Shown: in pieces, positions 6,966-20,351 of the stretch
Numbering within the stretch: position 1 is the stretch's first letter
Layout: every line of letters begins with the position of its first letter
Assembly: GCA_016872635.1 (NCBI GenBank)
Contig: VGZN01000002.1
Span: 1 to 42,921, forward strand
Reading direction: 5' to 3'
DNA from: Planctomycetota bacterium
GTDB lineage: Bacteria > Planctomycetota > Planctomycetia > Pirellulales > Pirellulaceae
DNA length: 42,921 bases
Notes under the pieces: model-generated
What the model was told of the DNA's origin: nothing
Databases searched by the model: none
The model's input: the letters and a program-made list of their open reading frames with translations, nothing else
Made by a program: the position numbers and the translations under genes

Positions 6966-7424
6966 CTACGAAGTGGCGGCTGTGGCGCTATCGCATGTTC
7001 CGCAATGTCCTTTGACGAGGACCTCGCTGATGCGTGAAATGTTAAGTGACCGACGGAGCGAAGGGCTGGGTAGAGCCATTTCATCGATGCAGGATACCGT
7101 GCCGCAGTCGGTGCAAACAAAGTGCGGGTGGCTGCTCCGATCGTGCGACGGATCGCGAAGTTCGAATCGCCAAACGCGATCCCCGAGCTCTGTTCGCAGA
7201 ACCAACTCGGCTTCGGTGAGGTCGGTAAGGTTTCGAAACACGGTCGCTTTGTCAAAGCCTAGTGGAACCAATTGATCAGCCAATTCCGCGTGGGTTTGAG
7301 GCTTTGTGGATCGCTTGAGCGCATTGATAACCGAGATCCGAGCTGGAGTGCTGCGCAATCCCGAATCGCGAAGAAGCTTTTTCGCTTCGTTCACTTCATC
7401 GATACTGGATTTCTTCTTGGACAT
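6966..7424 (-). CDS. Fur family transcriptional regulator
   Basis: A 152-residue protein with the Fur layout: winged-helix DNA-binding half (residues ~10-90, with STPARISVINAL and the recognition region DKATVFRNLTDL) and a dimerisation/metal half. Two structural zinc CxxC pairs are visible, C104-TD-C107 and C141-GT-C144, along with a HPHFVC histidine cluster and His45 that could form the sensing site. Members sense Fe2+, Zn2+, Mn2+ or peroxide; the residues do not settle which. The gene is the last of the eight-gene minus-strand cluster, 7 bp after the pseudo-receiver gene, so it is probably co-transcribed and may autoregulate the operon. Confidence 0.93.
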   Translation of the reverse strand: MSKKKSSIDEVNEAKKLLRDSGLRSTPARISVINALKRSTKPQTHAELADQLVPLGFDKATVFRNLTDLTEAELVLRTELGDRVWRFELRDPSHDRSSHPHFVCTDCGTVSCIDEMALPSPSLRRSLNISRISEVLVKGHCGTCDSATAATS

Positions 7425-7431
7425 GGTGGGC

Positions 7432-7812
7432 TTAAGCGGCGCTAGTACCGAGGACTTTGGCGAGCTTTTGGGTGGTTTCAGGCTTGTTGAGTTCTAGTTT
7501 TCCGAAACCTAGTTCAGCCCCCATTGCCATCGCTTGTTGCTGGTGTTCCGGGTAGTTCGTAATCAGCATAACAGGGATCGACGCATAATTCGAATCGGTC
7601 TTTAGATATCTCAAAATCTCGATCCCATCGCTGTAGTCTATATCTAATTTTCGGTTGATCAGAATAAGGTCGACGGGTTGGTCTTCCAAGCATTTCAACA
7701 TGTCGGATTGCTGGTCTGCGCGGAGGATTTCGACTTGGAACTGACGCTTCAGCATGGCTGCGATTGCGGCGTGATCAGGATTGCAATTGCCGACATCGAG
7801 AACGGTTTTCAT
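7432..7812 (-). CDS. Receiver-domain protein lacking the phosphorylation site (pseudo-receiver)
   Basis: A 126-residue stand-alone CheY-like fold: beta-1 KTVLDVGNC, a DLILINRKLD strand, IPVMLITNYPEHQQQAMAMGAELGFGK. The acidic pair that binds Mg2+ after beta-1 is replaced by G8-N9, and the phosphoacceptor Asp is Asn53 (INRKLD). The switch Thr (in LITN) and the late Lys (GFGK) are kept. It therefore probably cannot be phosphorylated and would act as a constitutive or protein-protein binding module. Its ATG abuts the TAG of the upstream 794-residue gene with no spacing, and the Fur gene follows 7 bp on, which places it firmly in the operon. Confidence 0.82.
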   Translation of the reverse strand: MKTVLDVGNCNPDHAAIAAMLKRQFQVEILRADQQSDMLKCLEDQPVDLILINRKLDIDYSDGIEILRYLKTDSNYASIPVMLITNYPEHQQQAMAMGAELGFGKLELNKPETTQKLAKVLGTSAA

Positions 7813-10197
7813 CTATCTGCCACTCTTCTTGTCGGCGATTTTGACTTCCAGTTCGCGAACGATGTCCTCTTGGAGGTAGTTTTTCACCAGATCGCTGGTG
7901 GTGCTGAGCATTTTATTGATTCGTTCTTTGACGGGTGCAGGAATGAGACCGTTTTCGGTGGATTCTGCACGACGCTCGATGTTTTGGATTTGGGAGGAAA
8001 GCCCTTCGTAGCTCCGAACCTTTTTCAGTTCATCGAGCAATGAGGAGGCTTCATCGAGTTTTCCTTCGTCAATCTTCCTGCGAGTGCGAGCGTCCAGAAT
8101 TTTTCGGCGAACGACGAGATCGAGGATTTCGCCTTGGATACCCTTGAGGAACGCTTCGGCTTGCAAGCGTCGGCGATCGTCTGGCAAGTCTGCTTTTTCC
8201 GATTCGCGATAGCCGGTGATGATCGGCAACCGTGCTAAAAGGGTCTCCCCATTTTTGATGTAGTACAGATACAGCGGTAATTTGATCTTGAGGGTGCTGG
8301 TCGGGGGTTTTTCCATCCGTTTCCGCAGCGCTTCTTGTTCCGCTGCCGCCTTAGCCGCTTCATCCTTCGGAGCGAAAGATGGAGGGTTCGTATCGGACGA
8401 TTCGGCAGATTTGGCTTTTAGCGCGGCGGCCGTTGTGAACCTGGCTTTCGCGATCGTCTCAAGCCCGCTCGAAGTGGGTTGATCGTAAGTTATTTCTGGG
8501 AGATCGGATTGCTTGAGGTCGATGATACCACGCCAATCGGAACGCCCCACCATGTTCAGGTCATCGGAACCTGGGGTTCGTCTGTAGACCTCGACGCCTG
8601 GTACCGCGCTGGCGGGGGAGCCACGAACTCCTAATTTCAGGTCAGTTTTTGCAAACTGCGGCTTGATCTTGAGTGCAACTCTTCTCGTTCGGCGATTCTT
8701 TGCAGCGACGAGTGCTCCTCGGCTGGCTGCAAAGATCGCTCCATAGTATCGCGCTTCATCGATCGGTTCGGTAACGGCGATGTATGTGAAAGCCATATTC
8801 TGGAGAAGGGTTGGGTTCCCAGTCAAGTCGTCCCGGCGAACGTAGGGAGCGAGGACGTCTCCAATATCGATGCGAATCGGGGAATCTGGCGTTGTCACCA
8901 GCCCGCTGGCCCGAACTCGAAGGATAGCTGTTTTGTTGTCATTCTCCTCGATCCGAGCCATGGGTGTGAAGCAAGCTCGTGAAAGGTAGGCGATTGCATT
9001 AGGTATTTCGTTAGTGCTGGTTGCGTAGCTCGTCTCCATCAAACCAATGCGTCGCACGAAGGCATCGAGTTCTTTGACCTGGATTCGAATCCGTTCTCCT
9101 TCTCGGTCGACCGAAACCAGCATGACCTTGTCCTTGTCACGAAGCATCGCTTCCGGTTGCCAAGGAAACCGCGTTGGAATCGTCCGAGACACTTCCTTGA
9201 CCTTCGGAACATCGGGCTTCGGAATCAAGGCGGCAAAGTACTTGCCGGTGTCCAGGTCTTCTTTCAGTTGTGAAAGGGACCCTTGGTACTCTACGATTTT
9301 CGTCTTCAACGCATTCCAATTCTCGACCTCACGCTCTTTGCGTTTCAGAGGCTCTTGGATTCGATTGATTTCCGATTGGAGTTCTTTGAGTTTGGCTTTC
9401 AACTCGCTCAGCTTTTTCTCCTTGTCCGAGTTCGGCTGGACCGTGACACCTCCAACCTTGGCTTCGGCTTCAAGCTGTTTAGTGAGTTCTACTTCTCTGG
9501 CGAGGAGTGGTTTGATTTCCTCTCGGAGTCGCGGGATCTCCTTGTCGACCAAGAAGGGGACAATATCCCGATTGAGGGCGTTGTATTGCAGCGATGGAAT
9601 CGCAATGGTCGGAATGCGTTCTACGGCTGAGTCAAACGTGCGTACGCTATTTAGGCTCAGGGCTCGCATTTCAGCGTCTTCTTTTGCCTTGAGATCTGCC
9701 TCTTCCTTTGCAGAGAGTTTTTTCTTGGGAGCCGATGGATCAACCTCTGGAACTTTTTTCGGTTGGATCGCGAGGAAAGCATCCTTGGCCTGATCGGACT
9801 TTGCGAGCATCAACACCAACTCGCGCGACAATAGCTGTTCGATGGTGAGGTCGTCGAGGTGGTAGAGCACCGAACCAAACAGAGCATCTGGTGTTTCCAG
9901 CACGTCGACGTTCCAAGTCGCTCCAAATTCAATTTCGGAGCACTCGAGAACCTTGCGATAGATCTCTTGTTTGGATTCTTCGGAGAGACCAAGCGTTGGT
10001 GAAATACTTGTCCAGACTCGAACCTTGTACGGGGAATACTCCCATACCTCTTGGGCCTGTAGGCACGTTGAAAGCAACACCAGCACAATCGTGTTCCATT
10101 GGGCTATGACCAGCAACGCCGTCCGTAACCTAGTGGGGATCGTTGGACGAAGATCGGCAGAGCATTGGGAGTGTAGGTGTTTCGGGGAAGCGATCAT
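7813..10197 (-). CDS. Large secreted coiled-coil protein of unknown function
   Basis: No family was recognised. The chosen ATG at 10197 overlaps the TGA of the preceding gene as ATGA, giving 794 residues; an ATG 18 bp further upstream would add six residues. A long N-terminal signal peptide (hydrophobic around residues 25-45, ending STCLQAQ) predicts export. Then follow a region EVWEYSPYKVRVW..., an Ala/Lys/Glu-rich segment, a coiled coil (about residues 215-300), a beta-rich middle and a charged helical C-terminus (about 670-790). There is no transmembrane span after the signal. Position inside the ExbB/ExbD operon suggests it is a periplasmic structural or scaffold part of that system; this is inference. 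Confidence 0.8.
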   Translation of the reverse strand: MIASPKHLHSQCSADLRPTIPTRLRTALLVIAQWNTIVLVLLSTCLQAQEVWEYSPYKVRVWTSISPTLGLSEESKQEIYRKVLECSEIEFGATWNVDVLETPDALFGSVLYHLDDLTIEQLLSRELVLMLAKSDQAKDAFLAIQPKKVPEVDPSAPKKKLSAKEEADLKAKEDAEMRALSLNSVRTFDSAVERIPTIAIPSLQYNALNRDIVPFLVDKEIPRLREEIKPLLAREVELTKQLEAEAKVGGVTVQPNSDKEKKLSELKAKLKELQSEINRIQEPLKRKEREVENWNALKTKIVEYQGSLSQLKEDLDTGKYFAALIPKPDVPKVKEVSRTIPTRFPWQPEAMLRDKDKVMLVSVDREGERIRIQVKELDAFVRRIGLMETSYATSTNEIPNAIAYLSRACFTPMARIEENDNKTAILRVRASGLVTTPDSPIRIDIGDVLAPYVRRDDLTGNPTLLQNMAFTYIAVTEPIDEARYYGAIFAASRGALVAAKNRRTRRVALKIKPQFAKTDLKLGVRGSPASAVPGVEVYRRTPGSDDLNMVGRSDWRGIIDLKQSDLPEITYDQPTSSGLETIAKARFTTAAALKAKSAESSDTNPPSFAPKDEAAKAAAEQEALRKRMEKPPTSTLKIKLPLYLYYIKNGETLLARLPIITGYRESEKADLPDDRRRLQAEAFLKGIQGEILDLVVRRKILDARTRRKIDEGKLDEASSLLDELKKVRSYEGLSSQIQNIERRAESTENGLIPAPVKERINKMLSTTSDLVKNYLQEDIVRELEVKIADKKSGR

Positions 10198-12581
10198 GGC
10201 GCTCGGTTTCTCCATTTCTGGAGGTCTTGATACAGTCCCAGTGGCTTTTGAGTTACTCCAGATACATCGTTCCGGTAAGCAAACGATTCGCTAACTTGCC
10301 AAAGCGGTAGGATTGGTAAGTGGGCAGCAACCAACGAATGAAGATCTTGGCAGCTTTGACGAACCTCGCGCCAGTTGCGAGACGCGCTCAATTGGCCGAG
10401 GATTTGGACGATGAATTGGTTGTTAGTTTCTGCGGGTGCGCCGATTCCGAACAATCGCTCCGCATCGGTTGCTGGTTCCCAGATCGATGCCGTCAGGTAA
10501 AGGATATCGACTGGCGAATCCTCCTTAGGGCCGGGAACTTTATCGAGCACGATCAACTCGGCGGGCACATCGATGAGTTTCCATTGCTCGATGATGGCTT
10601 GGCCCGCAACGCGAGCCGCTTCGTAGTTGGGAACTCCCAAACGGATTTTCGGAAGCGTTGGGACCGGTTCCTTTCGCTTCTCATACATCATCTTCAATTT
10701 GCTGTTGGTGATCAGCATAAGGACTTTGGCGAGCCTAGGATCGTATGCTTGATTCTCAACACTGTTGTTGTATGCGTAAGCAATGGGATCCTGTTCCGAA
10801 GCCCCGCGAGGAAACGGGCCGCTGATGACGCGGCTTTGCTCGGATTCACTACCCCCAAGAATTTCCCCTCGCAAGATTCCTTCGCGATTGATTGCGTAGA
10901 GAAGCGCGCGACGAAACTCGCGGTCATCGAGATAGGGATTGGAGGTACGAGGAACGAGCATGTGTACCGTTGGTAACGCGTAGGATGCGACATTGATCGT
11001 CTTGGAGACAATTGAAGCTTCCAACCGCTTGGCATCGGCCGGGAACAAGCGATCGATGATCTCAATCTCTCCACGCAGCAAATCGTTGATCGCTTGGCTC
11101 GGATCGGTATAGAGTATTTCGTGGATTTCGATCGGTTGAAAGTCTGCAGCTGGGCTCGACGATGCCCATTCGAATCGTTTGGTATCGCCATCTTGTGATT
11201 TAATTCGGTATAGCACTCCGGGAGGAGCTGCCCCTTCGACTTGGGTTTCGATAGGCCACTGAAGGAATGCCTGTGGAAGAACGTGAGGCCTACGGAATCG
11301 AACTTTCAGTCGCTCGGGACCAAAGACAGATACCGAATCGAAAATAGCAGCCCAACCCGGTACATAATCATCATTCCCGACAGTGGCTCGGCGTAAGAAC
11401 GATTGCGATAGATTCAGACTATTAGGGATGGCACCCAGTCCGGGGTTCTGGATGGTCATGTCGAGTTCGAGACGATCGTCGCTCTGCTGGAAAGAGCCCA
11501 AAGTGAATCGGTATTGCCCACCTTCCGGGCCGGTGCTTCGAAACTCGAACAACGGACGGCTGATCAATTGTCCCGACCGAAACGCCGGCCAATTGGCGAG
11601 AGCGGCTGTGTCGGGAGTATCGGCAGTTTGAAAAACGCCAACCCGCGTGATCGGAAATTCCTTGAGCAAATCGTTCAGGAGTTGACGTCCCCCTTCGATA
11701 CTAGGCTCTATCTCCAGCATTTTTGTCGCTTCGCGACGTGCGTTCATGAAATCCTTTTGGTCTCGGAAAGCGATCGCGCGATCGAGGTATTCCTTAGCGA
11801 GATCGAGGAATTTGCCTCGCCATTCTTCCACGACGGGAAGAGGGTCCTCTTTGTAGTCTTTCTCGAGACGGTTAATCATCGATCGAGCGGTTGCTAGATC
11901 TTTTTTGTCGAAGTACGACTTGATGAGCTGACTCGACACGCTGGTGATATATCCTCGCACTTTTTCCTTCTGGTAATTCGGAAAACTTCTTTGAAGTTCC
12001 TCGAGTACCGCCAAGGTATGGGCGAGGCGTTTTTGCCTGACCATTTCGACAGCGCTGGCGAAAAGGAAATCCTGTCTCAAGACTTGCAGGCCAGGCGTTT
12101 GCGGATAATTCACCAGGAGGAAATTGAGGTGCTCAAACGCTTCACCGAAATTCTTCTGTTCGACGAGTTGTTTGGCTTTTGCCAAGATCATCTGCTCGTA
12201 GAAGGAGACCTTTTCGATATCCTTCCAAAGGACCTCGTAGCGACGAGAAGGAAAGAGCAATATCGTTACTTGGAGTTTGTCGGTGTCTTTGGTTGCCGTC
12301 GGCATACGGCGATTCGGAATCTCTACCGGGGCAACCTTGACACTCCTGCCTGTTGCTTCTGGTTTGAGTGTGATGATGTCAAACGGCTCTTCGTCGAGGA
12401 GTGAAGTAACAACCTCAACCTCCTGAAAAATTTTGTCATAGTTGTCTTGCGCATTTGCTGACCGAGCGAATGTCGCGGCAACAACAAACACCGCGAGACT
12501 CAGGAACCAACCGAGGCGAGATTGGGGCAAAGATTTCTTGGAAACCGAAAGGATCATTTCTGCGTCGCTCCACCGTCTCAT
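10194..12581 (-). CDS. Periplasmic TPR plus family 5 (oligopeptide-type) solute-binding protein
   Basis: A 795-residue exported protein: signal peptide ending in RSANAQ-DNY (about residue 45), a helical TPR-like part (about 115-290) and a C-terminal domain (about 330-795) that resembles SBP_bac_5 (DppA/OppA-type) proteins, with PYLDDREFRRALLYAINREGI, the family's best signature, and the late ILYLTASIWEP region. In the family these proteins bind peptides, nickel or similar ligands for ABC importers, but no ABC permease or ATPase gene is present here, and the TPR fusion is unusual. The ATG forms TAATG with the stop of the PQQ-propeller gene. It probably serves as a binding or adaptor module of the ExbB/ExbD system. 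Confidence 0.82.
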   Translation of the reverse strand: MRRWSDAEMILSVSKKSLPQSRLGWFLSLAVFVVAATFARSANAQDNYDKIFQEVEVVTSLLDEEPFDIITLKPEATGRSVKVAPVEIPNRRMPTATKDTDKLQVTILLFPSRRYEVLWKDIEKVSFYEQMILAKAKQLVEQKNFGEAFEHLNFLLVNYPQTPGLQVLRQDFLFASAVEMVRQKRLAHTLAVLEELQRSFPNYQKEKVRGYITSVSSQLIKSYFDKKDLATARSMINRLEKDYKEDPLPVVEEWRGKFLDLAKEYLDRAIAFRDQKDFMNARREATKMLEIEPSIEGGRQLLNDLLKEFPITRVGVFQTADTPDTAALANWPAFRSGQLISRPLFEFRSTGPEGGQYRFTLGSFQQSDDRLELDMTIQNPGLGAIPNSLNLSQSFLRRATVGNDDYVPGWAAIFDSVSVFGPERLKVRFRRPHVLPQAFLQWPIETQVEGAAPPGVLYRIKSQDGDTKRFEWASSSPAADFQPIEIHEILYTDPSQAINDLLRGEIEIIDRLFPADAKRLEASIVSKTINVASYALPTVHMLVPRTSNPYLDDREFRRALLYAINREGILRGEILGGSESEQSRVISGPFPRGASEQDPIAYAYNNSVENQAYDPRLAKVLMLITNSKLKMMYEKRKEPVPTLPKIRLGVPNYEAARVAGQAIIEQWKLIDVPAELIVLDKVPGPKEDSPVDILYLTASIWEPATDAERLFGIGAPAETNNQFIVQILGQLSASRNWREVRQSCQDLHSLVAAHLPILPLWQVSESFAYRNDVSGVTQKPLGLYQDLQKWRNRAP

Positions 12582-15500
12582 TAACGAGTGCCTGTCGGGT
12601 TGGAGTTCGATTCCGAAGGGATAGGCGCGTTGATTATGGTTCCCTCGTCACCAGGTATAATCAATCCATTGGCTCCCAATCGGGGTGTTCCTGCGATGGG
12701 TTCTCCGGCTGAACTTCGAGCCGTTTCTTTACCATCTCGGCTTGAGATGCGAATCAACTCACCTGTGGTGCTCGATAGAATCAAATCGGATCCACTAGTC
12801 AGCGGATCGCCCACCAATACTACTTGCTGAAGCGGGGTCGACCACAGTTGCTTCCCTTCGGAGTTGAACGCGACGAGTCCTTCGATGTCGCTCAATGCCA
12901 AACCGATTGTGCCGGCATCGGTTTCTGCCGCGAATGGACCCCACGCAAAGCGTCCTTCGAAGGTGAGAGATGCGATCTTTTTAAATTCGCCGCTTTCGTA
13001 GAAGTCCATCACATCTCCAGACGCACCAGGTGAGATTCCAACGATCACATCGTTCAACGAAGCCAATCGGCCCTTGAGCGATTTCTCGAGGGGCTGCGAA
13101 TTGAGCATGCGAAGCTGCTTGCCGGTGGAAAGCTTGTAAAGATTTCGTTTTTGGTCAGCGATGACAACGGATTGCTTGTCAGACAGAAGGAGCGGGTTCA
13201 GCCATACTGGGCGCTCGCCAGCTGCGATCGTAGGTTGAAAGGCCGTTCCAATTTGCTTCCCACTTTCAGGATCGATCATCAATAGCTGCGAGTTTTCCAG
13301 TGGTACGATAAGGGAATTTCCAACTGCGATTGGGGCTGTAATCGGGTAGGAGTTGGCGAGATCGAGATTCACCAATTTTGTAGTCCAGCCTGCTTTTCGG
13401 CTAGGATCGACCAGCAGGAGCTGGCTTCCCTGAGATGAGTTGAGAAGCACGCTACGGCCATCTTCGAGTTGGGTGGAATTGGCGAACATCATCGAGCGTT
13501 GATTGCGCCCCATGTTCTCGATCTGCAAGTTGGGCTTTGACGATCCAAAGGCGTTTGACTCGACGCTGAACGTCGCACCTTGGCTGGTAACGGCCACCAT
13601 CGAGTTTTCGACCGGGGAAATCGAAGCGACCGGGGTACCGATATCGGTTTCCCAATAGGGGTTCCCTGTCTTGGGGTCGACAGCGGCGACGCGCACGCCC
13701 CCGGTACCGCGTACGATTCGGCTATGAACGATCGTTTCACCGATTTTGGTTGGACGACATGTGAACTCATCGAGGTCATCTTTGAGCCACATCGAATTGA
13801 GCTTTTGGCCGGTGATTTGTATTTGGAAATAGGCCAAGCGACTGGATGCCAACCATAGGTCTGTTCCCGACATCAATGGCCAAGTCACCTTGGGAGAGGC
13901 TTCGTTAGAGACCAGGTTTACCATTTTGAAAACCTTGTCGCGAGCGTTCGTCACCTCGACGTCTAGGATTGCGATTTCACCCAAGTTGGTAGCAACCGCC
14001 AATCGTCGACCTTCCACTTGGGGTTCGACCACAACGTGACCCTTGAATCGGACCGGCGCTTGGGCTTGGGTCAACTGAAGTCCTTCATCGTTGGTGGTGT
14101 AGACACGCATCAGGCAGTGGTCCGGCCCGGCATTTTCGAAGAGAATCAATTGGTTTAAAACCCAGATGGGCGGAACGACAATGGTTCCAGGATTATGGCC
14201 GACGTAGACGACTTCCTCACATTCGCCGTTTCCTCGGCTCATGACGTAAAGGTTCGAATGATTCCCGGGCAGATAGCGTTTGCGTTTTCCAGTCGCTCCA
14301 CCCATCCCCACATCGATTGGTTGCGGAATTTTCTTCGCCCATCGGGATTGACCCGAGATGGCATCCAAGCAGTAGATGTTGCCACCGACCGTGCAGACAA
14401 AAACATCGTCGCCATCTACCGTAGGTTCGAGGATTCTCTCCGGGAATTTACTTTTCCAGAGGAGGCTACCATCCTTTGCGGACAGTCTGCTTACCGTACC
14501 GCGAGAGGCGACGGCAACGATCGGATCGCTGTCGCTGGTTTGCGCGATGCGCTGCGGTTCCGAGTTCCAATCACGGCCGATGTATTTTCGCCACAAAACT
14601 TCACCGTTGGATACTTGGATCGCGACCACGGAGCCTTTTACGCGAAGGCATGCGACATCGCTGCTGTTGCTGTCGCTGGGGTTTCCAGTTCGGCTAGTCA
14701 GCAACGCTGTAGATGCATTTGCAGTCGCTGCAGGCTCATTGCTGACCGTTGGTACGGTGGCTGATTTAGAAACCAATCCCTTTTGAAGATTGGTAGCTGC
14801 TAGCATCAATTCGCGGAGTTTTTTATCGGGTTCCAAAGGTGGGTACTTGCGGATCAGTTCCTTGCGAAGGTCGTAGGTTTTTGTCACGTCCTGGGCATCG
14901 ATCGCTTGCTGCATATTCACCAACGTTGCGGCGAGGTCTTCGCTTTGTTGGATATCGCGAATCACTCGCTGTTGACCTTCTTCGATGGTCTTGATGCGCT
15001 GTTCGTTTTGGGTTCGTTCTTGAGTGCCGACGTAGCGAGGGTCTCGGATGAGTTCCATTTGTTGGTTCATCATGCCGATCAAATTTTTCCTATCTTCGGT
15101 ACCGGACATGTTCTCCGCTTTGACCACAAACTTCTCCGCGATACGGAGCAGAGTGTCGGTGACATCCACGCGCATTTGAGCCAAACCGGGCTCGTTCACA
15201 ATCTTGGGCAATTGTTCCTGAGCGGTCTTAAGAGCAATGGTTGGGTCTGCGTTCTTTTCCGCGTCCTGACGCACGCGAGCGATGGAAGCTTTGACTTTAG
15301 CAACGCTTACGTTCTCATCGGTTGTAAAGGTGCTGGCAAAAGTTTCATATTGCTTGATTGCCCGTTCGTAGTCTCTGTTCTTGAAAAGCTCTTCGGCCAT
15401 GTCGAACGACTCTTTGGCGGAGCCTCGGGCGAACCAAATGTAGAGGGGGACGAAGAAGATCAACAGCAAGAGAACGATGAAACCGACGCCGACGATCCCG

Positions 15501-16012
15501 AAGGATTCCCAAGGACTCTTATTAGCCTTCTTTGGTTTTGGGGCTTGTGCGACCTTGACCTCGGAGATTGGATCTTCCGCGAATGAAGACTTCTTTTTCT
15601 TCCTCTTTTTTGAGGTGGGTTCTTCCGTCGACTCCGCCTCAACGACTTCGACGACTTCGGCGACGGGACCCCCGACCACTTCCGCGACCTCGACGACTTC
15701 GGGTTCATCCGGAGGCAGAAGATCTTCGACGGAGTCCCCTTTTTTGGGCGTCGGTATTTCTACCGGGCGTCCGCCGCGCAACGCCGTAGACGAAGGATCC
15801 GTACCAGCAGCCCCGATCGTCTCATTGAGTTCGGTAATCAGTTTGGTTGCTTGGAACCGAGTCAATTGCCCATTATCGACCAAGAGTCGCGCGATGGCTT
15901 CGGGAGTTACGCGGACTTTCGATTGCTCGACTTGGTTATGGAGTTCCTGAATGATCTCAGGGTCGAGTAGGCCTTTGCTCTCGAGCATATTGATGAACTG
16001 CTGTGCGCTCAT
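12581..16012 (-). CDS. Membrane-anchored PQQ-like beta-propeller protein with cytoplasmic N-domain
   Basis: A 1143-residue protein. Residues 1-65 are a helical domain ending in the NGQLTRFQATKLI motif seen in planctomycete kinases and propeller proteins. A Glu/Val-rich acidic linker, then a KKRKKKKK basic patch, lead to one membrane span (about 172-195, IVGVGFIVLLLLIFFVPLYI). Outside the membrane come a TPR-like helical part (about 200-400) and a large propeller (about 430-1130) with repeated blades such as DGSLLWKSKF, SGQSRWAKKI, TGNPYWETDI and EGKQLWSTPL. Such propellers bind proteins or sense; PQQ cofactor binding is not implied. It starts 3 bp after the stop of the second ExbD gene, and its stop overlaps the next start. 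Confidence 0.88.
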   Translation of the reverse strand: MSAQQFINMLESKGLLDPEIIQELHNQVEQSKVRVTPEAIARLLVDNGQLTRFQATKLITELNETIGAAGTDPSSTALRGGRPVEIPTPKKGDSVEDLLPPDEPEVVEVAEVVGGPVAEVVEVVEAESTEEPTSKKRKKKKSSFAEDPISEVKVAQAPKPKKANKSPWESFGIVGVGFIVLLLLIFFVPLYIWFARGSAKESFDMAEELFKNRDYERAIKQYETFASTFTTDENVSVAKVKASIARVRQDAEKNADPTIALKTAQEQLPKIVNEPGLAQMRVDVTDTLLRIAEKFVVKAENMSGTEDRKNLIGMMNQQMELIRDPRYVGTQERTQNEQRIKTIEEGQQRVIRDIQQSEDLAATLVNMQQAIDAQDVTKTYDLRKELIRKYPPLEPDKKLRELMLAATNLQKGLVSKSATVPTVSNEPAATANASTALLTSRTGNPSDSNSSDVACLRVKGSVVAIQVSNGEVLWRKYIGRDWNSEPQRIAQTSDSDPIVAVASRGTVSRLSAKDGSLLWKSKFPERILEPTVDGDDVFVCTVGGNIYCLDAISGQSRWAKKIPQPIDVGMGGATGKRKRYLPGNHSNLYVMSRGNGECEEVVYVGHNPGTIVVPPIWVLNQLILFENAGPDHCLMRVYTTNDEGLQLTQAQAPVRFKGHVVVEPQVEGRRLAVATNLGEIAILDVEVTNARDKVFKMVNLVSNEASPKVTWPLMSGTDLWLASSRLAYFQIQITGQKLNSMWLKDDLDEFTCRPTKIGETIVHSRIVRGTGGVRVAAVDPKTGNPYWETDIGTPVASISPVENSMVAVTSQGATFSVESNAFGSSKPNLQIENMGRNQRSMMFANSTQLEDGRSVLLNSSQGSQLLLVDPSRKAGWTTKLVNLDLANSYPITAPIAVGNSLIVPLENSQLLMIDPESGKQIGTAFQPTIAAGERPVWLNPLLLSDKQSVVIADQKRNLYKLSTGKQLRMLNSQPLEKSLKGRLASLNDVIVGISPGASGDVMDFYESGEFKKIASLTFEGRFAWGPFAAETDAGTIGLALSDIEGLVAFNSEGKQLWSTPLQQVVLVGDPLTSGSDLILSSTTGELIRISSRDGKETARSSAGEPIAGTPRLGANGLIIPGDEGTIINAPIPSESNSNPTGTR

Positions 16013-16015
16013 TGG

Positions 16016-16804
16016 CTACTCAAACTCCTCGACAACCGTAACGCTGAAACTGTTGAACCCTTTTTCCCGCCCTGCATCAAGCGCTGCGACCACAGCAGCG
16101 TGAATACACTCTTCGTGGGCATCGATCAATAACTTAAGATTTTCATCTTCCTTACCCGTCGAAACCTCGGCGCGGGCTTCACCTAGAGCCATGAGCAAAT
16201 CTTGTTTGCTGCTGGCCTCCCGTTGGTCACCGGTTGGGAAAATCACGGTGTACGCATTGAACTCATCGATCTGAACTCGAACACTGTCGTAAACCTCTGG
16301 TGGTTTTTCCATCGGCTTGGTGCTGGGAGAGTCCGACAACGGCGGCGGCTTTTCGAAGACTTTTTCGCTTGAGAACGAAGCGGTGATCATGAAAAAGATC
16401 AGGAGCAAGAAGGTCACGTCCACCATCGGCGTCATGTCCATATCATCCTTGGGAAGTTCTTTCTTCGCAAAGGTGACTTGTTCCGGCTCTTCCTCCTCGG
16501 CGATAGCTACGCCCGATGCGCTCGGTGCGGCTGTTGCTACTGCTGGCTTAAGCGGGGCGTTGTTGGGGCTGTTGGTCGGCGTGGATTTTTCGATGGGATA
16601 TGAGCTGCTGCCCTGGGACGGTAACGCTGCTGGTGGCTGGGCGACAGAAGGCTCGGTTGTCTTCGCAGATGCTTCCTGAATCAAAAAAGTCTCATCGGCA
16701 CGGAATGGCTGATCGCAATTCGGACATCGAATTTCTCGGCCGATGACACGCGGATTGACGGATCGGATCACCAGGCAGTGTGGGCAGCGAATGCTCAAGC
16801 TCAT
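16016..16804 (-). CDS. ExbD/TolR family protein with N-terminal zinc ribbon
   Basis: A 262-residue biopolymer transport subunit. The C-terminal ~150 residues are ExbD-like: DMTPMVDVTFLLLIFFMITA carries the conserved, protonatable Asp at the start of the single membrane span (about 122-142), followed by a periplasmic domain. ExbD subunits convert proton flow through ExbB/TolQ into movement of periplasmic partners. Fused in front is a cytoplasmic zinc ribbon with CPHC at residues 7-10 and CPNC at 27-30, then a Ser/Pro/Ala linker. This makes it nearly twice the usual ~140 residues. Its ATG overlaps the TGA of the first ExbD gene as ATGA. Confidence 0.92.
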   Translation of the reverse strand: MSLSIRCPHCLVIRSVNPRVIGREIRCPNCDQPFRADETFLIQEASAKTTEPSVAQPPAALPSQGSSSYPIEKSTPTNSPNNAPLKPAVATAAPSASGVAIAEEEEPEQVTFAKKELPKDDMDMTPMVDVTFLLLIFFMITASFSSEKVFEKPPPLSDSPSTKPMEKPPEVYDSVRVQIDEFNAYTVIFPTGDQREASSKQDLLMALGEARAEVSTGKEDENLKLLIDAHEECIHAAVVAALDAGREKGFNSFSVTVVEEFE

Positions 16805-17343
16805 TTACCTGCCTCCGAAACGGAAAGATTGATCAGTTTGCCTTCTTCGAGGACTTCCGCAACTGCCTGCTCCACCTTCTTTAGTTGCTTGGCCGTGACG
16901 TTCCCCTCAGCTCGAATCAAAACTTCGGTCTTGCCGCCGGTTTCCATCTGCATTTGGACATACTCGGCAATTTCTGCAGATTGTTGCTCAGGATCATCGG
17001 AAAATACCGATCCATCCGCTTTGGCAACAATCGGGCTATCGCTGATGCCGCGTGTCACACTGAGCATCACGCAATTCTTAGTAGCGATGGAGCTGCCATG
17101 CTTTGCAGGTGGTACTTCGTACGATTTTTCACCGGTCATTTTGGAGGTCAAAATGAAGAAGATCAGGAGCAGAAACGTCATGTCGATCATAGGGGTGATG
17201 TCCATCTCATCGTCCATAGGAGGACGCGCACCGAGTTCGACTTGCTCCGGCTCTTCATCCGCTTCGACAACAGGAGTGGCTACCGTGCCCGCATCGAGCA
17301 AATCCGGCTCCTGTGCGTCAAATGAATTGGAATCTTTGTCCAT
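16801..17343 (-). CDS. ExbD/TolR family biopolymer transport protein
   Basis: A 180-residue ExbD. An acidic N-terminal segment (about 1-45) precedes MDITPMIDMTFLLLIFFILT, with the conserved Asp at the membrane-span start (about 46-66), and a periplasmic domain with a TEVLIRAEGNVTAKQLKKV end typical of the ExbD/TolR fold. It should work with the ExbB-like channel encoded just upstream (64 bp) and with the second ExbD, which overlaps its stop codon. The two ExbDs are paralogous but diverged, so a mixed ExbD dimer is possible. Confidence 0.93.
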   Translation of the reverse strand: MDKDSNSFDAQEPDLLDAGTVATPVVEADEEPEQVELGARPPMDDEMDITPMIDMTFLLLIFFILTSKMTGEKSYEVPPAKHGSSIATKNCVMLSVTRGISDSPIVAKADGSVFSDDPEQQSAEIAEYVQMQMETGGKTEVLIRAEGNVTAKQLKKVEQAVAEVLEEGKLINLSVSEAGK

Positions 17344-17407
17344 ACGTCCACGTACCTTCTCTGGACCTACACTGCCGTATTACGCAATCGACCCGTTGGC
17401 CAAACCA

Positions 17408-18142
17408 TTAGGCGCTTTGCCGAGCACCGCGTTGCTCTTCGCGAGCAAGGCCAACTTTGAAGGCTTCGAAAATTCGAGCCAATCCCGATCCAACCAGATC
17501 TTGCATGTGTCGGATTCGGTTGTGGATACTTGCCATCGCCATGACCAATGGAATAGCAATGGTCAAACCGATTGCGGTCGTTTCGAGAGCAACGCGAATG
17601 TCACCGGCCAAGTCGGTTGGATTGACGTTGGTTGCCGATGCCAGCTTACCGAACGCACCCATCATCCCCACCACGGTACCGAACAACCCGAGCATAGGTG
17701 CGGTTTTGATCACAGTCACGATCCAAGCGATGCTGTAGTCCAAATCGGCGATGACGTCTCGTTGGAATCGGTCGAGTGTGTACTGCCGCGTTTTCTGGTA
17801 ACCAAACGATCGATGCTTGCACGCATAAGTGATCAGCATGGGCAAAGCTCGTTTATCCCCCTCGCAAGCGGTGAGCACGGCGTCGAAATTACCCCGTTTC
17901 AAGTCATCTTCGATCGAGTCGATGAACTCGTCTTGCTGCTGCTCGGTTTTGAAACGCTTTGCGTTCACACGCGTCAAAACCAGAACGACGTAATAGGCTC
18001 CCCATAGAGCCACAGCCGCCAGCGCAACGTACGAGAGCTGTCCAACGATGTTGAAAACATCGGATGCATCTGCCAGCAAAAGAAAATCCATGGAGGGAGC
18101 GATGCTCGACGAAGCGAAGTGCGTAGCCAGATATTCGTGCAT
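17408..18142 (-). CDS. MotA/TolQ/ExbB proton channel family protein
   Basis: A 244-residue inner membrane protein with three spans (about 33-55, 134-155 and 178-198). The family core is clear: APMLGLFGTVVGMMGAF in span 2 and ALETTAIGLTIAIPLVMAM in span 3, with the conserved Thr/Gly residues lining the ion path. ExbB forms pentamers around an ExbD dimer and uses the proton gradient to power envelope work. It is the first gene of the eight-gene minus-strand operon. The first 17 residues before an internal Met (DFLLLADAS) may be extra; neither start has a clear ribosome site. Confidence 0.94.
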   Translation of the reverse strand: MHEYLATHFASSSIAPSMDFLLLADASDVFNIVGQLSYVALAAVALWGAYYVVLVLTRVNAKRFKTEQQQDEFIDSIEDDLKRGNFDAVLTACEGDKRALPMLITYACKHRSFGYQKTRQYTLDRFQRDVIADLDYSIAWIVTVIKTAPMLGLFGTVVGMMGAFGKLASATNVNPTDLAGDIRVALETTAIGLTIAIPLVMAMASIHNRIRHMQDLVGSGLARIFEAFKVGLAREEQRGARQSA

Positions 18143-18336: not shown

Positions 18337-20004
18337 TTAAGGGAGCAGGGGAATCACTTCGCCGCCATTGACCGTCATGAGTGCCCTAAGGATTTGCTCC
18401 GCGAGTTCGGCGGAAATCCAACGAACGGAACCATCGAACATGCCGACGTTGGCTCCTCGATCGGTCATCCAACTGGTGCCTGAGTTCTCGTCGATGTCTA
18501 AATCGTCAGGTGCCGTCCAGGGAACTGCCAGATGAGGTGCGACCTCGGTCAGTGCGATCGTATTGGACGTGCCGTCAGTGATCGCGGGCAGCCGCATGTT
18601 TTTGTCGAGCCAACCCGCATTTTTGCCGACAGGTGCCAAGTATACCGTATATCCAGGTGCAACCTCGACCTGAGGGTTGGCATAGGTTTGCGGCATCCGC
18701 TCCAACAACTTTATGTTGTGAGGACTATTCCACGGCTCATCCATATGAAATTGTTGGTAGAGCTCGTTTTGTTCGATGTACGGAAGGATCGAGACTCGCC
18801 AACTCAATAAAGGACTCCCGTCGTTACCTCGGATGACCCGATCCGGGAATTTTTTGTAGGCGGCTTCAAAATTATGCATTGCCAGCATGATTTGTTTCAT
18901 GTTGTTGCTGGAACTCATTCTCCGCGCGGCTTGTCGTGCTGACTGAACGGCAGGCAACAAAAGTCCTGTCATGACACCGATGGTCTGATAGCTCGCCATC
19001 ATCGACGTCTCGGTTTTCAACTCCAAACGATTGTCTTCGATCGACCACATCGAGGTATCACTGAATGACTCTTGCATTCTGTCCGCGTACTTCGACGCAG
19101 CCTGCTTCATGGCGTCGGAGATCCAAGGCTCCGTAGCTAGTTGCGATTCGACCGATTCTCGAGCAAACTGAAGACCTTGCGTTCGCAGTCGTTGGAGCGA
19201 TTCCTCCAGTTTTTCGGTCGATTCGCGATCAGCCGTCCCAAAGCTAACACGAATCGGATTGGAATCGGAGGCCTCGAGTTCAACAAGCAAATTGTCCGTC
19301 AACTCGATCACGCTCTCGATGTCGCCGTGAAACATTTCGGGAACTTGCTGTTCCTGGGTCATCCAGAGGCCGAGGAGAAGATCTCGAATCTGAACTAGAT
19401 TGATGGCGATCCTGACGTCCGATTGCCGCGAAGATACCAGTTCGACCGTCTTACCCCCCGTCCTGATCCGTTGGCTCATCATCCGACGGAGTGTCCCCTG
19501 GGTCCCAATCAAGACTCGGTTGGGGTCCTTTTGGGCGACCCGCAACATAGGGAAATCGTAGATGTCACGGAATCGCAATCGCTCGTCCTTCGGAGACACC
19601 TCGATTTGAGTGGCAACCTGTTCCGAGAGATCGGCGATATCGAACGGAGCAGACGTTCGGATCGAAAACCCAAACTCAGGCTCCGAGCTTGGCATGGAAA
19701 GGGTGGCATCGATTGTCTCGATATCGTCAAGGGCGAAACCGAATTGCTCTTGGCATGCCACGTTAAGGACTTCCCAAGGCCACATGCGGAACTGAGCGGA
19801 GCCTTTCAATTCTTGAAAGTCGATCGAGGCAATCGCTACCGAGTCGCTTGGAATATCGCTGTACCGTTCGACTTGTTGGCCCCATGCAATACCGAAGCTG
19901 CCAGCGGCAAAAACGATCGCTGCAACCACGGCTTGAGTAAGCCCAATAAGGACTCTTTTTCGCATCGTCTCACGAAGCAATCGCGTGGGGGACAAAAACG
20001 ACAT
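18337..20004 (-). CDS. DUF1559 (pilin-like H-X9-DG) domain protein with long N-terminal extension
   Basis: A 555-residue exported protein (ATG at 20004 with GGAG 11 bp upstream; a GTG at 20016 would add four residues). A signal peptide (ending SFGIAWGQ) is followed by an unrecognised ~310-residue domain, and only then by the DUF1559 signature: GLLLPAVQSARQAARRM, NNMKQIMLAMHNFE, LLSWRVSILPYIEQ and the end motif ANVGMFDGSVRWIS. Most planctomycete DUF1559 proteins carry this signature at the N-terminus with a type IV pilin-like cleavage site; here the prepilin site is absent and a Sec signal is used. The function of the family is not established. The gene appears monocistronic. Confidence 0.85.
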   Translation of the reverse strand: MSFLSPTRLLRETMRKRVLIGLTQAVVAAIVFAAGSFGIAWGQQVERYSDIPSDSVAIASIDFQELKGSAQFRMWPWEVLNVACQEQFGFALDDIETIDATLSMPSSEPEFGFSIRTSAPFDIADLSEQVATQIEVSPKDERLRFRDIYDFPMLRVAQKDPNRVLIGTQGTLRRMMSQRIRTGGKTVELVSSRQSDVRIAINLVQIRDLLLGLWMTQEQQVPEMFHGDIESVIELTDNLLVELEASDSNPIRVSFGTADRESTEKLEESLQRLRTQGLQFARESVESQLATEPWISDAMKQAASKYADRMQESFSDTSMWSIEDNRLELKTETSMMASYQTIGVMTGLLLPAVQSARQAARRMSSSNNMKQIMLAMHNFEAAYKKFPDRVIRGNDGSPLLSWRVSILPYIEQNELYQQFHMDEPWNSPHNIKLLERMPQTYANPQVEVAPGYTVYLAPVGKNAGWLDKNMRLPAITDGTSNTIALTEVAPHLAVPWTAPDDLDIDENSGTSWMTDRGANVGMFDGSVRWISAELAEQILRALMTVNGGEVIPLLP

Positions 20005-20351
20005 GGCTCGGTTCACTCCACAAAAAAATTAAAAGGAGGAGGCCGCAGACTCAACGCTCCAACGCTCCCGTTCGGCCCCCTCATTCAAATGGGGGCCCGC
20101 GTTACAGACCTCCAACGTGACGATAGTGTGGCGGTTGTAAATTTAACGGTCAACCGATTTCCTGGAACAATACACCAATCTCGCACAATCGTCACAATCC
20201 CCCATTCTTTGCCGCATGAACGAAATCAGGGGAAGTTTTCCTCATGCTCCGACAAGCCACTTTCTAAGGGTGGGCTAAATTGTAACGGGCAGCGAAGGCG
20301 TGCTGCTCGCATCGGAATTTCTTACTGGAGATACTGTGCGGGTGGAAAAAA
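20005..20351. other. Divergent intergenic region with a GC-rich hairpin
   Basis: 347 bp between the divergent DUF1559 gene and the 131-residue protein gene; it must hold both promoters. GGCCCCC (20074-20080) pairs with GGGGGCC (20091-20097) around a 10-nt loop, within 80 bp of the DUF1559 start. An A-rich run followed by AAGGAGGAGG (about 20020-20041) also lies here. No coding frame or RNA gene was recognised. Confidence 0.5.

What the first reader, a model, noticed from the sequence alone, without database searches (positions are those of the whole stretch)
6966..18142. Eight-gene ExbB/ExbD operon with propeller, binding protein, pseudo-receiver and Fur
Seen: ExbB-like channel, two different ExbDs, PQQ-like propeller with membrane anchor, TPR plus SBP family 5 protein, secreted coiled-coil protein, receiver lacking its phosphosite and a Fur-family regulator, on one strand with ATGA (16801-16804), TAATG (12579-12583), ATGA (10194-10197) and an abutting stop/start (7812/7813). 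Known: ExbB/ExbD and TolQ/TolR use the proton gradient to move a periplasmic partner (TonB, TolA). Here no TonB or TolA gene is in the operon; large periplasmic proteins of unknown role take that place. Inference: a planctomycete-specific energised envelope machine, perhaps for uptake or sorting of large molecules, with metal- or peroxide-linked control.
Basis: partly seen in the sequence, partly recalled or inferred. Interest (0 to 1): 0.75.

Follow-up and report, generated by a model that had tools for sequence, protein, structure and literature searches.

The report
Proton-powered envelope machine of planctomycetes
A set of six neighbouring genes, kept in the same order across much of one class of planctomycete bacteria, appears to build a proton-driven motor joined to large proteins between the two cell membranes; I found no description of it, and it could explain how these unusual cells power work at their outer membrane.

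Summary
The eight genes are there, on one strand, with the stated junctions. Six (ExbB, ExbD1, ExbD2, TPR/BamB-like propeller, TPR/SBP5 protein, secreted orphan protein) form an old core: all 37 fetched loci that hold the six keep order and strand. The pseudo-receiver and Fur genes were seen beside it only in the window's genus. The secreted protein is near-universal in the class (96 of 99 genomes by two profiles) and nearly absent outside (2 of 294, marginal). In five genomes the cluster is split, yet motor and periplasmic genes both persist; nine order-level genomes lack all. Both ExbDs keep the channel aspartate in every aligned row. Most relatives have a seventh gene at the operon head: a single-pass protein with a TonB/TolA-like layout but no recognised domain; it is not beside the cluster in this genus. 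The own genome shows no TonB_C, TolB_N or Plug match. Best reading: a 5:2 proton motor with two different axle subunits driving a class-specific trans-envelope machine. One machine: fairly well supported. Cargo: unknown; polymer uptake and a Tol-Pal-like role both fit. Planctopirus limnophila very probably carries it.

The parts
17408..18142 (-). ExbB/TolQ-like channel protein, 244 aa; T156 and T189 invariant
   Evidence: MotA_ExbB 77.9 bits; aligns to TolQ chains at E 1.2e-9 and to ExbB chains at 5.7e-8; both Thr in 39 of 39 rows, window included
16801..17343 (-). ExbD1, 180 aa, one TM helix with Asp54
   Evidence: ExbD 60.4 bits; D54 in 39 of 39 rows
16016..16804 (-). ExbD2, 262 aa, weak zinc-ribbon match at the N-terminus, TM helix with Asp129
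   Evidence: ExbD 63 bits, Zn_ribbon_4 below its cut-off; D129 in 40 of 40 rows
12581..16012 (-). Membrane-anchored protein with a BamB-like beta-propeller, 1143 aa, TM about 172-190, TPR-like stretch after it (weak YukC/BamD-type matches)
   Evidence: PQQ_2 101.9 bits; weak BamD and YbgF matches below cut-off; hydropathy gives a TM in the first 420 aa of 44 of 47 rows of 900 aa or more
10194..12581 (-). Probably exported TPR plus solute-binding-protein family 5 domain, 795 aa
   Evidence: SBP_bac_5 57.9 bits; family profile matches AgaA, DppA and NikA chains; N-terminal hydrophobic stretch
7813..10197 (-). Probably exported protein of an orphan family, with a coiled-coil insertion, 794 aa
   Evidence: No Pfam family matched by more than 1 of 25 homologues; only hit to PDB sequences E 2.3; N-terminal hydrophobic stretch
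7432..7812 (-). Pseudo-receiver, phosphosite Asp replaced by Asn; genus-level addition
   Evidence: Response_reg 33.9 bits; Asn in 13 of 13 rows
6966..7424 (-). Fur-family regulator with HPH...CxxC...GHCxxC; genus-level addition
   Evidence: FUR 48.9 bits; these motifs in 13 of 13 rows

Best explanation
The six core genes encode one proton-driven trans-envelope machine of the class Planctomycetia. ExbB forms the channel pentamer and ExbD1 plus ExbD2 form the two-subunit axle, each bringing its own membrane Asp (family mechanism: established knowledge; heterodimer: inferred). The motor works on the membrane-anchored propeller protein and, in most relatives, on the extra single-pass protein X, either of which could carry force into the periplasm (inferred). 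The SBP5 protein and the secreted orphan protein are the periplasmic parts that hold or pass the load (inferred). My commitment on purpose is energised handling of large molecules at the outer membrane, most likely uptake of polymers; this step is inference, about 0.35 to 0.4.
For: Order and strand kept in 37 of 37 six-gene loci from 35 genomes. Near-universal in the class: SBP protein in 95 of 99 genomes, secreted protein in 88 of 99 and 96 of 99 after a wider profile. In 5 genomes with a real split (G054, G287, G349, G409, G411) a strong cognate ExbB (E 2.6e-48 to 2.4e-78) with both ExbDs lies elsewhere in the genome. In family f23 the periplasmic genes are scattered but present: secreted protein 10 of 10, propeller protein 7 of 8. 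Nine order-level genomes lack full-length SBP, secreted and propeller proteins and show ExbB only in the score range of paralogues. Channel Asp and Thr invariant. For uptake: an SBP5 domain; dextran uptake in a planctomycete is stopped by the uncoupler CCCP, 0 of 816 treated cells against 23% of 1,065 (PMC5394234, figure-legend passage); own genome has no TonB_C or Plug match.
Against: No outer-membrane component is in the cluster. No direct evidence of cargo, localisation or interaction. Structure models were poor (mean pLDDT 50.5 and 47.4). In family f23 the ExbB-ExbD-ExbD sets score no better (93-118 bits) than the own genome's paralogous ExbB-ExbD-ExbD set on C14 (105 bits), so a cognate motor there is not shown. 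Nine genomes of the same order lack the machine. Presence does not track TonB_C: of 15 order-level genomes outside the genus and family, 5 of 8 TonB_C-positive and 3 of 7 TonB_C-negative ones have the SBP protein. Protein X is not beside the cluster in the window's genus or in two Planctopirus-like genomes.
Confidence: 0.4

Rival explanations
1. A Tol-Pal-like machine: the motor tethers, constricts or maintains the outer membrane in budding cells that lack TolB, with the propeller, TPR and secreted proteins doing the work of TolA, TolB and CpoB.
For: Nearest named families are TolQ and TolR, though far below cut-off (tolQ 60.9 bits against 221; TolQ chains rank above ExbB chains). TolB_N matches in 0 of 60 relatives, own included, while 3 of 14 control genomes ring. 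Gene content loosely parallels tolQ-tolR-tolA-tolB-pal-cpoB (E. coli order). Near-universal, mostly single-copy distribution in the class. Weak Foldseek matches of the secreted protein to TolB chains, probability 0.66 to 0.97 but E 0.10 to 0.21, with no match at E 0.001 or better and unrelated proteins ranked above.
Against: No Pal/OmpA domain in the cluster, though three OmpA-domain proteins lie elsewhere in the genome. hhalign of the N-domain family against E. coli TolB gave nothing above shuffled controls. Neutral: the main text of the P. limnophila essential-gene paper has no mention of exbB, exbD, Tol or TonB (search terms); its supplement was not read.
Confidence: 0.3
2. A surface or secretion motor of the AglRQS kind, moving adhesins or polymers over or out of the cell.
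For: AglRQS likewise pairs one MotA-like subunit with two MotB-like subunits (PMC9389320, passages) and also powers spore-coat assembly (PMC3858216, passages).
Against: No Glt, Nfs or Agl partner was recognised by Pfam among the eight proteins; no dedicated search for them was run.
Confidence: 0.12
3. Motor and periplasmic genes merely share an operon; the SBP protein is an ordinary ABC importer binding protein and the motor serves something else.
For: The SBP5 domain is real; Isosphaeraceae keep motor and the other genes apart; in family f23 the motor is not securely assigned.
Against: No ABC permease or ATPase among the eight genes; persistence of both halves in the 5 split genomes and joint absence in nine genomes.
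Confidence: 0.1

Closest known systems
TolQ-TolR-TolA-TolB-Pal (Tol-Pal)
   Same: Proton-driven motor of the same two families; gene set with a membrane-anchored periplasmic protein, a propeller and TPRs
   Different: Two ExbDs, no TolB_N, no Pal in the cluster, an SBP5 domain, an orphan secreted protein
ExbB-ExbD-TonB
   Same: Motor families and membrane Asp/Thr
   Different: No TonB_C or Plug match in the own genome; no TonB in the operon
PVC motor plus vWA transducer clusters (PMC12204202, section 8 read)
   Same: PVC group, a TolQ-like gene with a pair of different TolR-like genes and a TPR gene
   Different: No vWA domain in this cluster; the own genome has a separate ExbB-plus-vWA locus on C342
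AglRQS of Myxococcus
   Same: One channel subunit with two different axle subunits
   Different: No recognised Glt/Nfs partners
BamB
   Same: PQQ_2 propeller
   Different: Far below the BamB equivalog cut-off (85 against 285.2 bits), membrane-anchored, inside a motor operon

Membership tests
MotA/TolQ/ExbB-ExbD 5:2 motors | ExbB and ExbD family domains over curated cut-off | tested here: met
   77.9, 60.4 and 63.0 bits against 22.9, 25.4 and 25.4
MotA/TolQ/ExbB-ExbD 5:2 motors | Membrane Asp in ExbD and Thr in the channel subunit | tested here: met
   D54 39 of 39, D129 40 of 40, T156 and T189 39 of 39; both Thr align with Thr of TolQ
MotA/TolQ/ExbB-ExbD 5:2 motors | Pentamer with two-subunit axle | not testable with these tools
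   No complex prediction available
Ton system | TonB C-terminal domain protein | tested here: not met
   Own genome 0; same genus 0 of 25 including own; own assembly is 93.66% complete, so a missing piece is possible
Ton system | TonB-dependent receptors (Plug) | tested here: not met
   Own genome 0 matches; 3 other genus genomes have marginal ones, E 4.5e-4 to 6.8e-4
Tol-Pal | TolB with TolB_N domain | tested here: not met
   0 of 60 relatives, own included; controls ring in 3 of 14
Tol-Pal | TolQ and TolR equivalog scores | tested here: not met
   60.9 against 221; 34.8 and 38.2 against 127.3
Tol-Pal | TolB N-domain fold in the secreted protein | tested here: inconclusive
   Foldseek E 0.10 to 0.21 on a model of mean pLDDT 50.5; no profile signal
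vWA motor transducers | vWA-fold protein beside the motor genes | tested here: not met
   No VWA match in the eight proteins
AglRQS | Two different TolR-like subunits with one TolQ-like subunit | tested here: met
AglRQS | Glt/Nfs partner proteins | not tested
   No profile search for them was run
ABC importer | Permease and ATPase with the SBP | tested here: not met
   None among the eight genes; the rest of the genome was not searched
Response-regulator receivers | Phospho-acceptor Asp | tested here: not met
   Asn in 13 of 13 rows

The most novel reading that the evidence does not exclude
This is the dedicated motor of the planctomycete outer membrane: a proton-driven machine with a two-paralogue axle and a new kind of transducer (protein X and/or the propeller protein) that powers import of intact polymers at the crateriform structures, the pits that link the two membranes in this class.
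Probability: 0.2. Interest if true: 0.88.

Novelty: new variant of a known kind. Interest (0 to 1): 0.64.

Why it matters
Planctomycetes are reported to take up dextran in a CCCP-sensitive way (PMC5394234), lack FtsZ (PMC8871954, passage) and, in the 60 relatives sampled here, show no TolB_N match; what powers their outer membrane is open. This gene set is a class-wide, mostly single-copy candidate with a proton motor, and it is present in what is very probably Planctopirus limnophila, a planctomycete in which deletion mutants have been made (PMC10632474, passages). It turns the question into a deletion experiment. It also adds a motor with two conserved ExbD paralogues and protein families without a described role in such systems.

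Tried and rejected
Metal or peroxide control as part of the machine: rejected, REC and Fur seen only in the genus. TonB replacement as a simple rule: rejected, cluster presence does not track TonB_C. Cluster simply absent from Isosphaeraceae and family f23: rejected for the periplasmic genes after profile searches found them apart; for the f23 motor it stays open. L082 first looked as if a condensin locus had replaced the motor; its motor, X and propeller genes were then found on another contig (L102). G046 looked like a sixth split genome, but its motor contig ends inside the propeller gene and another contig starts inside one (L101 and L054), so it is probably an assembly break; G046 also has a second X-propeller-SBP-secreted set without a motor (L065).

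Led nowhere: AlphaFold models of the secreted and SBP proteins (pLDDT 50.5 and 47.4). VIA-align of the secreted protein matched its C-terminal helical bundle and coiled coil; TolB was not among the 50 rows shown. hhalign against E. coli TolB. Pfam, NCBIfam and PDB sequence searches for protein X. Promoter and terminator scan below the shuffled mean. PMC searches gave no description of this cluster in the listings shown (one search listed 20 of 122 papers, one search listed 15 of 62); only passages or a section of chosen papers were read, and subscription papers are not held. R. baltica genes RB12053/RB12055 (exbB/exbD) induced by salt (PMC2754498, passage) could not be tied to this cluster. 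The V. spinosum essential-genome paper has none of the motor terms searched.

Counting notes: the class count (99 genomes) was made by hand from the kinship column, own genome included; genomes below the printed list were taken to be 'same phylum' because the list is sorted by kinship. The wider profile A8 was not run outside the class, and holds rows from two f23 genomes (G323, G375). The 37 six-gene loci are 35 genomes (L031 and L071 are one genome; L055 and L067 are two copies in one genome) and were fetched because they had an SBP match, so they are not an unbiased sample; the other 24 of 61 loci are contig-edge cuts, splits or lone SBP genes. ExbD1 and ExbD2 labels were given by best profile match, so their separation in the tree is partly circular; the fixed order in 37 of 37 loci is the independent part. 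In one search two ExbD paralogues of the own genome were dropped for lack of the trimming motif. In one search propeller rows under 900 aa were left out (47 of 51 kept). Protein X: the script's own count is 26 of 45 non-genus loci with 900 nt or more upstream; my 33 of 35 leaves out 12 motor-only loci (L103-L114), 5 own-genome paralogue loci and L050, L054, L062 and L081, whose cluster start is not visible, and takes in loci with less room.

Full report
Observation. Pfam puts MotA_ExbB, ExbD twice, PQQ_2, SBP_bac_5, TPR_14, Response_reg and FUR over their cut-offs; the secreted protein matches no family over cut-off. The window is contig C2 of a 6.08 Mb, 93.66%-complete assembly with seven MotA_ExbB matches, so this is one of several motors; the nearest named relatives include uncultured Pirellula MAGs.

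The conserved unit. The SBP protein was found in 51 of 60 relatives, own genome included. Around those and class-level hits, loci were fetched and annotated with profiles built from them. Of 61 loci (L031-L091), 37 hold all six genes, and all 37 are collinear on one strand; they come from 35 genomes. L100 (genome G242) adds one more full set. REC and FUR were found beside the core only in the genus.

Distribution. With a profile, 172 of 393 genomes of the phylum match the SBP protein; by hand count 95 of 99 class genomes do, and most of the 77 matches outside the class are partial and weak, G086 being the clearest exception. The orphan secreted protein is the cleaner marker: 88 of 99 in the class and 2 of 294 outside, at E 3.0e-4 and 3.8e-4. 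A wider profile then found it in 10 of 10 genomes of family f23, including the 8 missed before, giving 96 of 99.

Co-retention. In five genomes the cluster is split: G054, and the Isosphaeraceae-type G287, G349 and G409, keep X-propeller-SBP-secreted in one place and ExbB-ExbD1-ExbD2 in another; G411 keeps X-ExbB-ExbD1-ExbD2-propeller in one place and SBP-secreted in another. Their cognate ExbBs match at E 2.6e-48 to 2.4e-78, well above their other ExbBs. In family f23 the propeller protein (7 of 8 tested), SBP (not found in G394) and secreted protein (10 of 10) are diverged and lie apart. ExbB-ExbD-ExbD sets also occur there (8 of 8 loci examined, 93-118 bits), but the own genome's paralogous set on C14 scores 105 bits, so I do not count the f23 motor as cognate. 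Nine genomes of the same order have no full-length SBP protein (short partial matches in 4 of 9), no secreted protein (0 of 9), no propeller match longer than about 130 positions at E 1e-15, and ExbB matches only in the range of paralogues. Parts that persist when the operon breaks up, and are missing together elsewhere, are best explained by one machine.

Names. Contig length 5,472,964 for G349 equals the published chromosome of Isosphaera pallida (PMC3072084, passages), so f22 is taken as Isosphaeraceae. Contig length 5,423,075 for G242 equals 5,460,085 minus the 37,010-base plasmid of Planctopirus limnophila (PMC3035269, passages; that paper's own figures are inconsistent). That f23 is Gemmataceae is my recall from genome size, not a call.

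Motor chemistry. In 39 and 40 aligned rows the ExbD1 and ExbD2 membrane Asp never varies; in 39 ExbB rows T156 and T189 never vary and align with Thr of TolQ (genus rows are over-represented). PMC12204202 (section 8 read) states that such Asp and Thr are essential in this motor family. Sequence-labelled ExbD1 always precedes ExbD2 (37 of 37 loci), and a tree separates 48 ExbD1 (support 0.88, with one own-genome paralogue inside) from 49 ExbD2 (support only 0.31). Two paralogues kept side by side suggest a heterodimeric axle; that is inference. [quoted passage not shown]

Protein X. Comparing flanks outside the genus revealed a seventh gene: about 300 residues, short N-terminal segment, one TM helix, a Glu/Gly-rich linker and a conserved C-terminal domain (by eye). 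By my tally it lies upstream on the same strand in 33 of 35 non-genus cluster loci whose start is visible, before ExbB or, where the motor has moved away, before the propeller gene. Motor-only loci lack it (L103-L111, L113, L114; L112 has a weak match on the other strand). It is absent beside the cluster in the two Planctopirus-like loci and in 12 of 12 genus loci with room; in 9 genus loci a DUF1559 gene stands upstream. It matches no Pfam, NCBIfam or PDB family meaningfully and has no conserved His in its TM, unlike the SHLS motif described for TonB and TolA (PMC12204202). Its layout makes it a candidate force transducer.

What it is not. No TonB_C in the own genome, no Plug, no TolB_N in 60 relatives, and no vWA, ABC permease or ABC ATPase among the eight proteins. 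The PVC motor-vWA systems of PMC12204202 are a different arrangement; this genome has a separate ExbB-plus-vWA locus on C342.

Function. The distribution matches class traits. PMC8882080 (passages) says all described Planctomycetia bud, while the described Phycisphaeraceae lack crateriform structures and divide by binary fission. PMC5394234 (passages) reports that dextran uptake vanishes with CCCP and that crateriform structures appear to join outer and cytoplasmic membrane. These traits share one distribution, so it cannot separate an uptake role from a budding or envelope role. Crateriform structures were not observed in some Planctomycetia (PMC8303584, passages). An SBP5 domain without an ABC transporter in the operon leans to uptake; TolQ/TolR-leaning scores, absence of TolB_N and near-universal presence lean to a Tol-like role; the TolB rows of Foldseek are too weak to count for much. 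I commit to uptake of large molecules by a small margin.

Literature. Searches of the held PMC library showed no description of this cluster in the papers listed.

Noticed in passing
L042:14350-15294, L055:15121-16026, L079:2052-3023 and 30 other loci: A seventh conserved gene (protein X) with TonB/TolA-like layout at the head of the operon outside the window's genus; no recognised domain.
   Followed up: partly
L067:422-10143 and L055 (genome G040): One genome holds two copies of the six-gene cluster, the second strongly diverged.
   Followed up: no
L097 (own genome C342): A weak MotA_ExbB gene, two further genes and a VWA_3 protein: a separate vWA-type motor locus, perhaps like those reported in PVC bacteria.
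   Followed up: no
L092 (own genome C355): Another motor locus: TPR protein, ExbB with a long N-terminus, ExbD and a 685-aa protein.
   Followed up: no
L093:5891-7702 (own genome C14): A paralogous ExbB followed by two ExbDs, with TPR proteins beside it.
   Followed up: no
window 18337-20016: DUF1559 (SBP_bac_10, H-X9-DG-CTERM) gene 194 nt upstream of exbB in part of this genus, standing where relatives have protein X.
   Followed up: partly
downstream of the cluster in 13 loci outside the genus, e.g. L044:10788-12194: A recurrent downstream family, mostly on the opposite strand; by eye its N-terminal module resembles that of the propeller protein.
   Followed up: no
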